Source: an uncultured Eubacterium sp. (GTDB taxonomy: Bacteria > Bacillota > Clostridia > Peptostreptococcales > Anaerovoracaceae). Taken from it: a stretch of DNA of 6,778 nt. Under the pieces are notes generated by a model. It was not told the DNA's origin and searched no databases. It saw nothing but the letters and a program-made list of their open reading frames with translations. The stretch lies in NCBI GenBank assembly GCA_946614405.1, contig CAMOGZ010000082.1, positions 1 through 6,778 of the forward strand, in the 5' to 3' direction. This document shows, piece by piece, positions 313-5,652 of this stretch. A program made the translations under genes and the position numbers. The stretch's first letter is position 1. Each line of letters starts with the position of its first letter.

Positions 313-487
313 GTCAGCCTCTTCCCTCGTATCTTATCTGCAAATAAAATAGAACGCATCGCCGAGTTGCATGTACATCCGGAGTGCTGTTCTTCTGAAG
401 AAGGGAACAGCAAACCAGAGCCCCTTCCGCAGGTTCGGGGCACATGCAAACCGACAAGCATTCCACCTTGATGCCTGACTGATCTAT
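313..487 (-). other. Leader between the second aptamer and the 93-residue gene
   Basis: This stretch holds no convincing gene. On the minus strand it can form a hairpin with arms TGCTGTT and AACAGCA (about 383-410) and a weaker one with arms GCCCC and GGGGC (about 419-440). Neither is followed by a run of T, so they do not look like intrinsic terminators. An open frame from the ATG at 459-461 (AATGCTTGTC on the minus strand) ends in a TGA that overlaps the ATG of the 93-residue gene. Its start has a poorly spaced ribosome binding site and its product is unlike a normal protein. Confidence 0.4.
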
Positions 488-489
488 GG

Positions 490-600
490 CTGGCAGACCT
501 GACTCGCAAGCAAACGCCTGCACACAGTAGAGGTAAGACTGTGCCGGATTCTCACCGGCTTGTCACTTAGCACGACCGACACCCGCTGATGCGGGCCCTT
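490..600 (-). promoter_or_regulatory. Compact cobalamin-aptamer-like RNA (second of a tandem pair)
   Basis: Read on the minus strand, the element has a closed P3-like hairpin (GCCGGTGAGAATCCGGC, 543-559). Next comes CACAGTCTTACC and then TACTGTG, matching the CxGxCxxxCxxxACTGT core of cobalamin riboswitches. The 3' box GAGTCAGGTCTGCC (492-505) is a shortened form of the family's GAGTCAGGAxACCTGCC. A small GC hairpin (CCCGC/GCGGG, 582-595) sits at the 5' end. The aptamer departs from the usual form in the P4 region, where GGGAA and CCCGC are replaced by GTGACAA and TCTTACC, and it lacks the long P7-P11 insert. It could be a class-II-like or variant cobalamin aptamer with altered ligand preference, or a decayed copy. 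It lies downstream of the terminator of the first riboswitch. Confidence 0.62.
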
Positions 601-629
601 CGCGACCACAGACCACACGATATACAATT

Positions 630-660: not shown

Positions 661-714
661 CGGTTTTACTGTACTATAATTCCCTTCCTCAGTCACTCCG
701 CTGAATGGAAATCG
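661..714 (-). promoter_or_regulatory. Linker with a possible competing hairpin of the expression platform
   Basis: Between aptamer and terminator the minus strand can form TTCC-AT-TCAG paired with CTGA-GGAA, an imperfect 8-bp stem near 686-711. It competes with a smaller GGAA/TTCC hairpin at the aptamer end. This could connect P1 formation to the terminator, but I could not identify a clean antiterminator. Confidence 0.3.
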
Positions 715-885
715 GTTCCATGCAGGTCTCCTGGCTCATGGATCATCGCGTCCGTTAACCCTTCCCAGCTTACGCCAGTGGGTGACTCCTGTCGCTTAAC
801 GTTGCTCCCCAAACACAGTGGCGGGACCGCTCAGGCATCTCTCCTGATTCCCTATTAACCCTCAAACCAATGAGGGACATGGAAC
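715..885 (-). promoter_or_regulatory. Cobalamin riboswitch aptamer, left copy
   Basis: On the minus strand all main conserved boxes are present in order. P1 is closed by GTTCCATG (878-885) and CATGGAAC (715-722), 8 bp. P2 is CCCTCA/TGAGGG (859-876). Then come AATAGGGAATCAGG, the core GCGGTCCCGCCACTGTG, the CCACTGG and GGGAAGG elements of the peripheral domain, and the 3' B12 box GAGCCAGGAGACCTGC (722-737). This is the full-length clostridial form that binds adenosylcobalamin or a related corrinoid. It has its own promoter upstream and a terminator downstream, yet the next elements are a second aptamer and a gene for a small HNH-repeat protein, not a cobalamin synthesis or transport gene. Confidence 0.95.
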
Positions 886-908
886 GTATATTCAGTTCTT
901 TCATGTAT

Positions 909-1051: not shown

Positions 1052-1110
1052 ATCGATATAAGAACGATAACACAGATAGATCTTTGGTTATCATCCGTCA
1101 GGAGGTTATT

Positions 1111-1944
1111 ATGACGATCGAGGAAATGAAGGAACGGAAGAGATCACTGGGATATACGTATCAGGATATTGCAGAGCTGTCCGGCGTTCCACTGGGAACG
1201 GTACAGAAGATCTTCGGTAATGTGACCAAGTCGCCCCGTCGGGAGACGATACTGGCCCTGGAGAAAGTACTGCTGCCACAGAAGCATGCCTTCTCTTATC
1301 AGGAGATCATGGAAGCAGACAGCGCAGGCGGGACTGTATCGGAGGCAGTCACTCCTTATACATCCGCTGTTTCAGAAAAGAAGCAAGGTGAGTATACGCT
1401 TGAGGATTATTACGCTCTTCCGGACGACCACCGGGCAGAGTTGATCGATGGGGTCCTTTATGATATGACCTCACCTACGACGACGCACCAGACCATCGCG
1501 CTGCAAATTTCTTACCAACTACTTCTGCAGAGCGAGGGACATGATGACTGCGCGGTATTTATCTCCCCTGTGGATGTACAACTGGATTGCGATGACCGCA
1601 CTATGGTAGAACCAGATGTAGTAATACTTTGTGATCTGAAGAAGAACATCAACCGATGTATCTACGGTGCGCCGGACTTTGTTCTCGAGGTCCTGTCCCC
1701 CTCTACCCGGAGCCGTGACCTCATCATCAAGCTGAACAAGTACTGGCATGCCGGATGCCGCGAGTACTGGATCGTAGACCCGGAGGACCGGTCCGTGACC
1801 GTCTATGACTTCGAACATGAACGGATGGGACTCCACTACACCTTCGCGGACACGGTGCCGGTAGCAATATCCGGAGACCAGTGCAGCATTGACTTTCGCA
1901 AGATCGCACAGCAGCTGGACCGGTTCGCTTCCTTTCAGAAGTAA
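1111..1944 (+). CDS. HTH domain fused to a Uma2-family (DUF820) PD-(D/E)XK nuclease-like domain
   Basis: The 277-residue product has two parts. Residues 1-55 look like an Xre-type helix-turn-helix (YTYQDIAELSGVPLGTVQKIFG at about 15-36). After a linker, residues 95-275 form a Uma2 domain. The family's signature parts are clear: EPDVVILCD with D169, GAPDFVLEVLSPST with E193, and RDLIIKLNKYWHAG with K207, followed by REYWIVDP. D169, E193 and K207 match the PD-(D/E)XK active site, so the protein is probably catalytically competent. The Uma2 family is very common in cyanobacteria and scattered elsewhere; its substrate is poorly known. I chose ATG 1111 because AGGAGG lies five bases upstream, rather than an upstream start at 1084. 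The N-terminal module suggests DNA-targeted action or self-regulation. The gene stands alone on the plus strand and ends at a strong shared hairpin. Confidence 0.88.
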   Translation: MTIEEMKERKRSLGYTYQDIAELSGVPLGTVQKIFGNVTKSPRRETILALEKVLLPQKHAFSYQEIMEADSAGGTVSEAVTPYTSAVSEKKQGEYTLEDYYALPDDHRAELIDGVLYDMTSPTTTHQTIALQISYQLLLQSEGHDDCAVFISPVDVQLDCDDRTMVEPDVVILCDLKKNINRCIYGAPDFVLEVLSPSTRSRDLIIKLNKYWHAGCREYWIVDPEDRSVTVYDFEHERMGLHYTFADTVPVAISGDQCSIDFRKIAQQLDRFASFQK

Positions 1945-1945
1945 C

Positions 1946-1980
1946 AGAGAAGGTGCCCTTGCGAGCACCTTCTCTTTAAT
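1946..1980 (+). terminator. Strong hairpin terminator between convergent genes
   Basis: Perfect 11-bp arms AGAGAAGGTGC (1946-1956) and GCACCTTCTCT (1965-1975) flank an 8-base loop, followed by TTAATT. It starts one base after the stop codon of the Uma2 gene and ends at the stop codon of the convergent membrane protein gene. On the minus strand no T run follows, so it works best for the plus-strand gene, though it may slow minus-strand transcription too. Confidence 0.8.
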
Positions 1981-2383
1981 TAAAACTCTCGATGACGATA
2001 TTAGGATTCATCTTCTTTGCAAGTTTCTTGATTCCGTCAGAATCATAGGAATGGATCACGTAGGACCGCATCTTCACATCCCAGCGGATGTGGAGCAGAA
2101 CATTCGGGGCCTTTTCTTTGTAATTGAAGCCCAGAGAGTTGATGTCCTCCCAGCGCCACGTATTCTCGTGGACCAGGGTCAGCACCCTCAGCCGGGTGGT
2201 GATGCCCTTCTCATTGATGATCTGTTCCTTCTCCAGGAAGCAGGCCAGAAGCACCAGAAATGCGATGGGGATATAGAACAGCTGATGCTGCAGGATCTCC
2301 ATGACGATCAGCACGCAGACGACTGCGATATACATGATCTTGGTGTTCCGGTCTCTCGTCTTGACGATTCCTCTGAATTCCAT
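1976..2383 (-). CDS. Small two-helix membrane protein with a PH-like C-terminal part, function unknown
   Basis: The 135-residue product begins with a short basic segment, then two hydrophobic helices at about 16-31 and 35-50 joined by a short turn. A soluble domain of about 85 residues follows, with the pattern INEKGITTRL and TWRWEDINSLGF. This pattern of a buried Trp plus 'WxDI' recalls bacterial PH-like (bPH/YcxB type) membrane proteins, a weak assignment made by eye. The ATG comes one base after the TAA stop of the antiporter gene and has no clear ribosome binding site, so translation is probably coupled to it. A longer frame from a GTG at 2416 exists but lacks a ribosome binding site and would overlap the antiporter by 32 bases. 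It may assist or modulate the antiporter; this is inferred from the tight spacing only. Confidence 0.75.
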   Translation of the reverse strand: MEFRGIVKTRDRNTKIMYIAVVCVLIVMEILQHQLFYIPIAFLVLLACFLEKEQIINEKGITTRLRVLTLVHENTWRWEDINSLGFNYKEKAPNVLLHIRWDVKMRSYVIHSYDSDGIKKLAKKMNPNIVIESFN

Positions 2384-4027: not shown

Positions 4028-4057
4028 ATTATATTATATACAATATAATCTCGTCAA
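4028..4057 (-). promoter_or_regulatory. Promoter of the nhaC-like gene
   Basis: Minus-strand TTGACG (4052-4057) and TATAAT (4028-4033) are 18 bp apart, in a very AT-rich stretch. Predicted start is near 4021. The octamer TAATATTT (4061-4068) lies three bases upstream of the -35 box, exactly as at the lysO promoter. Confidence 0.82.
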
Positions 4058-4095
4058 CAGAAATATTACTGATTTATTAATTATTTTAAGTTTGC

Positions 4096-4110
4096 ATAAG
4101 TTCTGCTTAT
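4096..4110 (-). promoter_or_regulatory. Palindromic operator (LysR-type T-N11-A box) of the nhaC-like gene
   Basis: On the minus strand it reads ATAAG-CAG-AACTTAT, an imperfect palindrome containing a T-N11-A core, followed by GCAA. It lies 38 bp upstream of the -35 box. The same site, ATAAG-TTA-AACTTAT followed by GCAA, stands at the same distance ahead of the lysO-like gene. Confidence 0.75.
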
Positions 4111-4156
4111 TCTATCTATTCCGATTGTTTATATTAAGTGTCATTTCCGCTGTGAT

Positions 4157-5116
4157 TTACAGAAAGAACGGTACCGCCACCGGTACCAGCACTGAGATCA
4201 CGAACCCGGAAACGAAGGAATAAAGTGCCGTCTGAGAGTTGGTCACCCGCTCCACGATGGGAAGGCATGTGTCCATAGCGGAGGACCCCGGAAGTCCGAT
4301 GGTCTCCACGCAGCCGATGTATCTTGCTGCGATGGGGATCAGGACGATGGCGAAGGTCTCTCTCATCACATTATGCATGAAGGACACGGTTCCCGCCGTG
4401 ATGTATCCCGCATCCATGATAATGCCCGGCGCGATGGAGTACCAGCCGAATCCGGCTCCAATCGCCAGGCACTCCTTTGTGCTAAGTGGCAGGATCCATG
4501 CGCAGGCCGCAGCCCCTGCAAGGGTGCCGGCAACGATGGCAACAGGAAGCAGGAACACCCGCAGTCCCACGTGTCTCAGACCATCAAAGGCATGGCCATC
4601 CATCCCCAGGTCAATGCCGATGAGAAAAAGCTGCAGCGACAGGCTCACTGAGATCAGCACTGCGGCTCTTCCGTCCACGACTTCTCCCCGGGCAAGTCCG
4701 CTGCTCACAAGGAGATACCCCGCGGCGACTCCCCCTGACACAAAGCCCAGAATGCCGAGGATCATGAGATGATTGGACTTCTGCCCGATCTTCTCCTTGC
4801 CGCTTCCGGCCGCATCTGCTCCCCGCAGATTTCCCTGGCGGTCCAGCCCGATCACCTTCCGCATCAGCGTTATGGCCGATGCCGAGCCCACCATGGTAGC
4901 GATGGTGATGGCCAGAGCATATAGCCCGTAGCTTCCCAGGGATCCCACGATCTCCTGATTGGATCCCACGCGCATCCCCATGAAGAACACTACCATCAGA
5001 ATGCAGATCACCTGCACCGTACCGGTCCAGGGAAGCTTCACCCCCTTCTTCCGCAGCACCATGGCCGCCGCATAGCCCACAAAACAATATACCAGATAAA
5101 TCAAAGCTCCACTCAT
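4157..5116 (-). CDS. lysO: LysO-family L-lysine exporter
   Basis: The 319-residue protein is an integral membrane protein with about eight or more hydrophobic helices, in the DUF340/Lys_export family; E. coli LysO (YbjE) is about 300 residues. Family motifs are clear in the C-terminal half: GIDLGMDG at 167-174, GFGWYSIAPGIIMDAG at 222-237, HNVMRETFAIVLIP at 248-261 and GSSAMDTCLPIVERVTNS at 277-294. The glutamate in NVMRE (E253) belongs to a conserved membrane-embedded charged motif. LysO exports lysine and its toxic analogue thialysine. A polar loop at about 93-115 separates the N-terminal part from the C-terminal core. I chose ATG 5116 because GGAGAGGGG is seven bases upstream; a longer frame from a TTG at 5167 would run into the promoter. 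No terminator is visible between this gene and the nhaC promoter, so read-through is possible. Confidence 0.92.
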   Translation of the reverse strand: MSGALIYLVYCFVGYAAAMVLRKKGVKLPWTGTVQVICILMVVFFMGMRVGSNQEIVGSLGSYGLYALAITIATMVGSASAITLMRKVIGLDRQGNLRGADAAGSGKEKIGQKSNHLMILGILGFVSGGVAAGYLLVSSGLARGEVVDGRAAVLISVSLSLQLFLIGIDLGMDGHAFDGLRHVGLRVFLLPVAIVAGTLAGAAACAWILPLSTKECLAIGAGFGWYSIAPGIIMDAGYITAGTVSFMHNVMRETFAIVLIPIAARYIGCVETIGLPGSSAMDTCLPIVERVTNSQTALYSFVSGFVISVLVPVAVPFFL

Positions 5117-5147
5117 AACTAGTCCCCTCTCCAAAAATAAAATCAAG

Positions 5148-5164
5148 CTGTGGATCAGCCACAG
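5148..5164 (-). repeat. Short hairpin at the start of the lysO transcript
   Basis: CTGTGG and CCACAG form a 6-bp stem with a 5-base loop, at or just after the predicted transcription start near 5160. It could protect the 5' end of the message or be an operator half overlapping the start point. Confidence 0.4.
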
Positions 5165-5166
5165 CA

Positions 5167-5196
5167 ATTATATCGCAGTTATTCCGCTAAGGTCAA
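5167..5196 (-). promoter_or_regulatory. lysO: Promoter of the lysO-like gene
   Basis: Minus-strand TTGACC (5191-5196) and consensus TATAAT (5167-5172) are 18 bp apart, the same layout as at the nhaC-like gene. TAATATTT (5200-5207) lies three bases upstream of the -35 box. This gives the exporter a promoter of its own, separate from the riboswitch unit farther upstream. Confidence 0.85.
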
Positions 5197-5234
5197 GGAA
5201 AATATTAGTATTATGAATGTTATTTGAGGATTGC

Positions 5235-5249
5235 ATAAGTTTAACTTAT
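5235..5249 (-). promoter_or_regulatory. Palindromic operator (LysR-type T-N11-A box) of the lysO-like gene
   Basis: ATAAG-TTA-AACTTAT on the minus strand is a perfect 7-1-7 palindrome containing a T-N11-A core. It lies 38 bp upstream of the -35 box, centred about 82 bases from the predicted start. Position and sequence match the site at 4096-4110. No LysR-type regulator gene is in the window. Confidence 0.78.
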
Positions 5250-5291: not shown

Positions 5292-5357
5292 AAATGAAAA
5301 AAGAATGAAAAGCAATTGGGGCTCCCACAGTTCAGTAGTTAACTGAAGTAGGGAAAA

Positions 5358-5385
5358 TTAAAAAGACTGTGGTTCGCCCACAGCC
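5358..5385 (-). terminator. Intrinsic terminator of the right cobalamin riboswitch unit
   Basis: On the minus strand GGCTGTGG and CCACAGTC form an 8-bp stem (one wobble) around a 5-base loop, followed by TTTTTAATTTT. It lies about 50 bases after the aptamer, as in the left unit. A second TTCAGT/ACTGAA hairpin (5331-5347) and a CTGTGG copy near 5323 follow; the latter could pair with the 3' arm. Confidence 0.85.
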
Positions 5386-5437
5386 CGTATTCGCTGATGC
5401 TTGTATCCGACCATCGGTCTGCCGCCGATTCAGATAA

Positions 5438-5602
5438 TTTTATGCAGGTCTCCTGGCTTATGGATCGCCACATCACTTCTCCTTCCCAGTTTCATCCAGT
5501 GGATAGCTTTCGCCGTGAAATGATGCTCCCCAAACACAGTGGCGGGACCGCGCCGGACTCAAACCGGCTTCCCTCTTAGCTCCCTCGCGGGAGAACATAA
5601 AA
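5438..5602 (-). promoter_or_regulatory. Cobalamin riboswitch aptamer, right copy
   Basis: On the minus strand P1 is formed by TTTTATG (5596-5602) and CATAAAA (5438-5444), and P2 by CTCCC/GGGAG. These are followed by AAGAGGGAAGCCGG, the core GCGGTCCCGCCACTGTG, CCACTGG and GGGAAGG in the peripheral domain, and the 3' box AAGCCAGGAGACCTGC. It is the same full-length form as the left copy, and both share CACTGTGTTTGGGGAGC; the variable stems differ. The unit has its own promoter and terminator. The next gene downstream, the lysine exporter, has its own promoter, so its link to this switch would need read-through. Confidence 0.95.
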
Positions 5603-5623
5603 CGCATTTTCAATTGCAATTTA

Positions 5624-5652
5624 ATTGTATCCATTTCTGTACTCTTCGTCAA
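5624..5652 (-). promoter_or_regulatory. Sigma-A promoter of the right riboswitch unit
   Basis: Minus-strand TTGACG (5647-5652) and TACAAT (5624-5629) are 17 bp apart. Predicted start is near 5617, giving an RNA of about 260 nucleotides when terminated. Both riboswitch promoters carry CCCCTTGAC around the -35 box. It lies 30 bases beyond the end of the nuclease-like gene, which has no terminator of its own that I can see. Confidence 0.85.

What the first reader, a model, noticed from the sequence alone, without database searches (positions are those of the whole stretch)
4028..5249. lysO-like and nhaC-like genes have superimposable promoters with the same operator
On the minus strand, 5167-5249 and 4028-4110 align without gaps: ATAAG-N3-AACTTATGCAA, then TAATATTT three bases before the -35 box, then TTGAC-N18-TATAAT. 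The distance from palindrome to -35 is 38 bp in both. The surrounding sequence differs, so this is not a simple duplication. The palindrome fits the LysR-type T-N11-A rule, and TAATATTT sits where an activation subsite could be. This predicts a two-transporter regulon, with lysine export and sodium/proton exchange controlled by one unseen regulator.
Basis: partly seen in the sequence, partly recalled or inferred. Interest (0 to 1): 0.75.

Follow-up and report, generated by a model that had tools for sequence, protein, structure and literature searches.

The report
Twin promoters on two lysine-linked transporters
Two neighbouring bacterial genes, one from the lysine-exporter family and one from a transporter family named after sodium/proton exchange, carry nearly the same palindrome at the same place in their promoter sequences, so a LysR-type regulator is likely to switch them together, while a vitamin-B12 riboswitch ahead of the exporter is predicted to add a second control.

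Summary
In detail: the two 83-bp minus-strand promoters agree at 51 of 83 bases, at 35 of 35 element positions, and at background level elsewhere. The composite layout occurs twice in this genome, both times here, and in none of 344 other family genomes. The LysR reading gains moderate support: of three other places in 349 family genomes holding the exact operator, two lie at LysR genes, though a reversed control pattern matches as often by chance. Sodium/proton exchange is probably the wrong role: nhaC orthologs follow lysine riboswitches in two genomes and a lysO-like gene in two others. A cobalamin riboswitch and terminator lie upstream of lysO; a neighbouring genus has this element ahead of lysO-nhaC or nhaC in 4 of 4 assessable loci. 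Most likely: a lysine-transport pair with an older B12-riboswitch layer and a newer LysR layer. Regulator, effector and substrates are untested; contig C82 may be mis-binned.

The parts
5231..5249 (-). operator ahead of lysO, ATAAG-N3-AACTTATGCAA; the 15-bp core is a perfect palindrome around one base
   Evidence: sequence; exact match
4092..4110 (-). operator ahead of nhaC, same pattern, three inner bases differ
   Evidence: sequence; exact match
5200..5207 (-). TAATATTT, possible second subsite, lysO promoter
4061..4068 (-). TAATATTT, possible second subsite, nhaC promoter
5167..5196 (-). lysO promoter P2: TTGACC, 18 bp, TATAAT
   Evidence: 11 of 12 consensus positions
4028..4057 (-). nhaC promoter: TTGACG, 18 bp, TATAAT
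   Evidence: 11 of 12 consensus positions
5624..5652 (-). promoter-like P1 upstream of the riboswitch: TTGACG, 17 bp, TACAAT
5426..5615 (-). cobalamin riboswitch aptamer upstream of lysO
   Evidence: RF00174, 107.6 bits against a gathering score of 31.5
5354..5386 (-). intrinsic terminator after the riboswitch (stem 5386-5364, then T-rich tail)
5147..5165 (-). terminator-like hairpin at the predicted start of the P2 transcript
4157..5116 (-). lysO-like gene, 319 aa
   Evidence: PF03956, 192.5 bits against 23.8; P0001; both key acidic residues
2385..3905 (-). nhaC-like gene, 506 aa
   Evidence: TIGR00931, 396.1 bits against 370; P0121

Best explanation
The lysO-like and nhaC-like genes each have a sigma-70-type promoter sequence with the same operator pattern at the same distance, and a LysR-type regulator is likely to bind both and set them together. 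The nhaC-like protein probably moves lysine, so the pair would be a lysine-transport regulon rather than lysine export plus sodium/proton exchange. A cobalamin riboswitch with its own promoter-like sequence and terminator lies ahead of lysO; it is predicted to let transcripts run into lysO when adenosylcobalamin is scarce, which would fit a genome that encodes a lysine 5,6-aminomutase-type protein. The riboswitch is probably the older layer, shared with a neighbouring genus, and the LysR layer a later addition that gave nhaC its own promoter matched to that of lysO. The best candidate regulator in the genome is the LysR protein at G000:C1:13090-13965; its effector, presumably a basic amino acid, is unknown. 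Shown: the elements, their counts and the gene orders. Inferred: binding, activation, substrates, ligand response and the order of events.
For: Elements identical at 35 of 35 positions with background identity elsewhere. Layout unique to these two places in 345 family genomes. Two of three other exact operator places lie at LysR genes: G254 directly before the start of one, G284 between one and an azlC-like gene. LysR genes with helix YTQ-x-x-[ILV]-[ST]-Q (or YSQ) have a significant core-like site upstream in 4 of 9 (first set) and 3 of 12 (fresh set), other helices in 0 of 24 and 0 of 18. nhaC orthologs follow a lysine riboswitch in G176 and G205 and a lysO-like gene in G284 and G285. Cobalamin riboswitch ahead of lysO-nhaC (G284, G285) or nhaC (G280, G281) in 4 of 4 assessable loci of genus g70. 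Own genome has an OAM_dimer match.
Against: No exact core in 29 nhaC and 35 lysO loci of relatives. The reversed control pattern hits 8 of 349 genomes against 4 for the operator. The helix split was chosen after the first set; the fresh set alone gives Fisher p 0.054, and one of the first nine, L080, had been found through the operator. No LysR gene lies in the window. The predicted operator centre of -82 is not the classic position. No antiterminator was shown for the riboswitch. The contig may be mis-binned.
Confidence: 0.42

Rival explanations
1. The operator belongs to a non-LysR dimeric regulator, for instance a Fur-type protein or a TetR or MarR type, which might repress rather than activate.
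For: The lysO core is a perfect 7-1-7 palindrome (sequence; the resemblance to Fur boxes is recalled). The centre at -82 is unusual for a LysR site.
Against: The nhaC site breaks the inner three bases, so only ATAAG and AACTTATGCAA are kept. Two of three other exact places lie at LysR genes.
Confidence: 0.2
2. The regulon is: lysine export plus true sodium/proton exchange, so that pH or ion balance follows lysine movement.
For: The protein passes the NhaC profile. PMC11477304 (passages) keeps a genuine antiporter as one option for a lysine-riboswitch NhaC.
Against: Lysine riboswitches ahead of two orthologs and the lysO tandem in two others; PMC5584792 (passages) lists NhaC-superfamily lysW as a lysine transporter gene.
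Confidence: 0.2
3. The riboswitch does not control lysO: the terminator ends a short leader, or the riboswitch is a leftover of a neighbouring cobalamin operon, and only P2 serves lysO.
For: P2 stands between riboswitch and lysO, and the aptamer ends 310 bp before the lysO start. A second terminator-like hairpin lies at the P2 start. In G284 a CbiK-like and a FecCD-like gene lie near lysO-nhaC, with a further cobalamin riboswitch about 7 kb away, a possible source.
Against: In G284 and G285 riboswitch and terminator stand directly before lysO-nhaC, and in G280 and G281 directly before nhaC, so the association was kept in several arrangements.
Confidence: 0.35
4. The likeness is a copied promoter without a common regulator, or chance.
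For: The genes are neighbours, and relatives do not keep the operator.
Against: Identity outside the elements is at background (16 of 48, 14.1 expected), which excludes a recent copy; chance is excluded by the shuffles and by the uniqueness of the layout.
Confidence: 0.08

Closest known systems
CcpC of Bacillus, LysR-type regulator of citB (PMC8514465, passages)
   Same: Boxes ATAA and TTAT; a dyad plus a half-dyad nearer the promoter. The own LysR L012 matches the solved CcpC 5z72 at E 1.8e-15, though BenM and others score higher.
   Different: There the dyad is centred at -66 and the targets are TCA-branch genes; here the predicted centre is -82 and the targets are transporters.
LysG-LysE and ArgP-argO: LysR-type control of basic amino acid exporters (title and abstract start of PMC5648196; a reference title)
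   Same: A LysR-type regulator paired with a basic amino acid exporter.
   Different: LysE and ArgO are another exporter family (recalled). Here no LysR gene is adjacent and two transporters share the operator.
Lysine-riboswitch NhaC (LysW) (PMC5584792 and PMC11477304, passages)
   Same: Same superfamily; orthologs in G176 and G205 have the lysine riboswitch.
   Different: No lysine riboswitch in the window or found in the own genome.
Cobalamin riboswitches
   Same: Matched by RF00174 and followed by a terminator.
   Different: The three in C. difficile serve cobalamin synthesis, cobalt import and a BtuCDF-like system (PMC11477304); here the next genes are lysO-like and nhaC-like.

Membership tests
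LysR-type regulator operator | T-N11-A palindrome | tested here: met
   both cores, by sequence
LysR-type regulator operator | main site centred near -65 | tested here: not met
   -82 in both, from a predicted start site; the usual position is recalled, -66 for CcpC
LysR-type regulator operator | second, weaker subsite nearer the promoter | tested here: inconclusive
   TAATATTT at -47 to -40 in both; the 31-bp pair idea failed in the fresh set (0 of 12)
LysR-type regulator operator | same operator at LysR genes elsewhere | tested here: met
   2 of 3 other exact places
LysR-type regulator operator | bound by a LysR protein | not testable with these tools
   needs gel shift or footprint
CcpC regulon | ATAA-N7-TTAT dyad | tested here: met
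   both cores, by sequence; boxes as
CcpC regulon | targets are citrate-branch genes | tested here: not met
   targets are PF03956 and PF03553 proteins
LysO exporter family | PF03956 over its cut-off | tested here: met
   192.5 against 23.8 bits
LysO exporter family | acidic residues E233 and D261 of E. coli LysO | tested here: met
   both aligned to E and D (residues)
LysO exporter family | exports lysine | not testable with these tools
   no transport data
NhaC antiporter (TIGR00931) | profile over its cut-off | tested here: met
   396.1 against 370 bits
NhaC antiporter (TIGR00931) | exchanges sodium for protons | not testable with these tools
   no transport data
LysW lysine transporter | lysine riboswitch ahead of the gene | tested here: not met
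   absent in the window and not found in the own genome; present at 2 of 29 orthologs
Cobalamin riboswitch | RF00174 over its gathering score | tested here: met
   107.6 against 31.5 bits

The most novel reading that the evidence does not exclude
Lysine traffic here is gated by two signals: an adenosylcobalamin riboswitch reports whether the B12-dependent lysine 5,6-aminomutase can work, and a LysR protein reports lysine. Both act on a LysO exporter and an NhaC-type lysine transporter, which would settle what lysine-linked NhaC proteins carry.
Probability: 0.25. Interest if true: 0.7.

Novelty: new variant of a known kind. Interest (0 to 1): 0.42.

Why it matters
PMC11477304 (passages) calls the function of lysine-riboswitch NhaC proteins unknown. 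A shared operator with a LysO-family gene, plus the tandem in two relatives, gives a testable hint that the substrate is lysine. A cobalamin riboswitch on lysine transporters would extend B12 control from making and importing the cofactor to handling the substrate of a B12-dependent fermentation. I saw no report of that in three searches of the held library (listings of 3, 9 and 9 papers, three of which I opened for passages: PMC9600662, PMC11477304, PMC5584792). That is not proof of absence from print.

Tried and rejected
Conservation of the operator in relatives: rejected. Recent promoter duplication: rejected, identity outside the elements is at background. A fixed 31-bp pair of sites upstream of LysR genes looked good in the first set (6 of 9 with the helix, 4 of 24 without) and failed in the fresh set (0 of 12 and 1 of 18), so it is not used. 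A LysR gene near lysO in Eubacterium infirmum (L054) was looked at; no exact core occurs in that locus. Solved structures: no sequence relative of either transporter. CcpC membership: the targets do not fit. Riboswitch platform: single-strand folds were unremarkable (z -0.54 and -1.01), and an antiterminator was not shown.

Rows dropped: L192 from the first LysR set; 10 of 40 fetched regions from the fresh set, because the script found no LysR start. The fresh 40 are a part of the matches that had no locus. L078 had no upstream DNA, so 34 of 35 lysO loci entered the upstream scans; all 35 entered the whole-locus scan. The nhaC loci are the 29 best outside the own genome; 185 of 345 genomes had some match. 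The B12-box test is a text pattern, not a covariance model, and would miss a divergent box such as that of G280. G283 has only 157 bp before nhaC and could not be judged. Some upstream windows began too far out; one search repeats the test on whole loci.

Full report
Source. The window is contig C82 of a draft genome of 1.46 Mb in 223 contigs, 89% complete and 4% contaminated. A same-genus genome has a contig as long (268,749) as a Hornefia butyriciproducens record, and NCBI places Hornefia in Anaerovoracaceae; the placement is an inference.

Observation. The two minus-strand promoters align without gaps over 83 bp with 51 identities; shuffles never reach this (0 of 20,000 in register, 0 of 500 over all registers). 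All 35 element positions agree; the other 48 agree at 16, with 14.1 expected. Both are 11-of-12 sigma-70 matches with an 18-bp spacer. The exact 19-bp operator exists only at these two places in the own genome; with 3 mismatches it has 9 matches and the reversed control 16. The composite layout occurs nowhere else in 345 family genomes (control 0) and at two places, both in another family, in an order sample of 393 genomes that partly repeats the first.

What binds there. Both cores read ATAAG-N5-CTTAT, which is ATAA-N7-TTAT and fits T-N11-A. A search of 349 family genomes for ATAAG-N5-CTTATGCAA hit 4 genomes, while the reversed control hit 8, so the number of matches is at chance. Their places are more telling. 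G254 has the site just before the start of a LysR gene. G284 has it between a LysR gene, partial at the contig edge, and a gene with a weak AzlC match (38 bits against a cut-off of 332). G288 has a symmetric copy between what look, by recall, like a phosphatase and a helicase gene. Sampled genomes of the first two genera had 9 to 11 LysR candidates each (G257, G260, G281, G286), a percent or so of intergenic regions by my estimate, so two of three is unlikely by chance. The own genome has six LysR matches; L010, L011 and L012 share the GYTQ helix.

LysR upstream regions. In a first set of 33, LysR genes with helix YTQ or YSQ-x-x-[ILV]-[ST]-Q had a significant core-like site within 120 bp upstream in 4 of 9, other helices in 0 of 24. 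One of the nine, L080, had been found through the operator. In a fresh set (40 fetched, 30 usable) the counts were 3 of 12 and 0 of 18. Fisher p is 0.054 for the fresh set and 0.0002 for both together. The split was made after seeing the first set. Own L012 (GYTQAAISQL) has ATTAGCGTAACTTAT upstream, sharing the right half AACTTAT with both window sites. It is my best candidate, weakly supported; L010 scores 8 of 10, not significant alone.

Conservation. No exact core occurs in the 29 best nhaC loci (63-91% identity) or in 35 lysO loci of relatives. It removes conservation as support but not the within-genome evidence: the nearest lysO protein outside this species is about 50% identical among those scored, and the nearest nhaC loci (88-91%) already have another upstream layout.

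What the genes do. The lysO product passes PF03956 and keeps both acidic residues reported as essential in E. coli LysO (87 of 296 aligned residues identical). The nhaC product passes the NhaC profile, 396 against 370 bits. Two orthologs at 73% have lysine riboswitches ahead of them (G176, G205). In G284 and G285 the ortholog directly follows a lysO-like gene, 39% and 37% identical to the window's. PMC5584792 lists NhaC-superfamily lysW as a lysine transporter gene (passages); PMC11477304 calls the function unknown (passages). Lysine transport is therefore more likely than plain sodium/proton exchange, but it is not shown.

Second layer. Upstream of lysO on the same strand lie a promoter-like sequence (5652-5624), a cobalamin riboswitch (5615-5426, 107.6 bits) and a terminator (stem 5386-5364). 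G284 and G285 show riboswitch, terminator, lysO, nhaC in that order; G280 and G281 show the riboswitch directly before nhaC; G283 cannot be judged. In the 24 more distant nhaC loci no cobalamin riboswitch reached the gathering score, and 0 of 34 lysO relatives show a B12-box pattern within 800 bp upstream (less sensitive). In G284 CbiK-like and FecCD-like genes lie near, and another cobalamin riboswitch lies about 7 kb away, a possible origin. The own genome has one OAM_dimer match beside a KamD-like protein (name recalled) 89% identical to that of G285. The D-lysine enzyme is adenosylcobalamin-dependent by the title of a reference in PMC9600662. That low cofactor blocks lysine use and releases lysine transport is inference. 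No lysine riboswitch was found in the own genome.

Caution. nhaC is 88-91% identical to genus g70 but 70-74% to members of the assigned genus, and the PH-domain gene 66-69% against 27-30%. The KamD-like protein could be compared with g70 only, and genes on C90 and C160 matched the assigned genus at 70-89% with little g70 DNA at hand. C82 may be a contaminant or carry transferred genes; GC does not settle it (0.522 against 0.525-0.557 for nine other own stretches). This bears on which LysR is the partner, not on the observation.

Verdict. A genuine pair of matched promoters, most likely a small LysR-type regulon for lysine transport on top of a cobalamin riboswitch: a new variant built from known kinds of parts.

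Noticed in passing
window 460-625 and 704-897, minus strand: Two cobalamin riboswitches in tandem (34.3 and 121.1 bits), ahead of a 93-aa ORF with a homing-endonuclease-associated repeat (31-312) or a gene beyond the contig end.
   Followed up: partly
window 1976-2383, minus strand: A bacterial PH-domain gene (bPH_7) directly after nhaC; a homolog lies beside nhaC in 14 of the 19 nhaC loci fetched.
   Followed up: partly
window 5147-5165, minus strand: Terminator-like hairpin at the predicted start of the P2 transcript, with a stem resembling that of the riboswitch terminator; it might stop readthrough from P1.
   Followed up: partly
window 1084-1944, plus strand: An ORF with a Uma2 domain and a weak helix-turn-helix match.
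   Followed up: no
L082 (G288:C1), around 1501-1523: A fully symmetric TTGCATAAG-N5-CTTATGCAA between two genes that do not look like LysR targets.
   Followed up: no
L115 (G284), 9626-12258, plus strand: An M20 amidohydrolase gene and a PLP-enzyme-like gene lie divergent from the riboswitch-lysO-nhaC unit; a similar pair lies beside nhaC in L117.
   Followed up: partly
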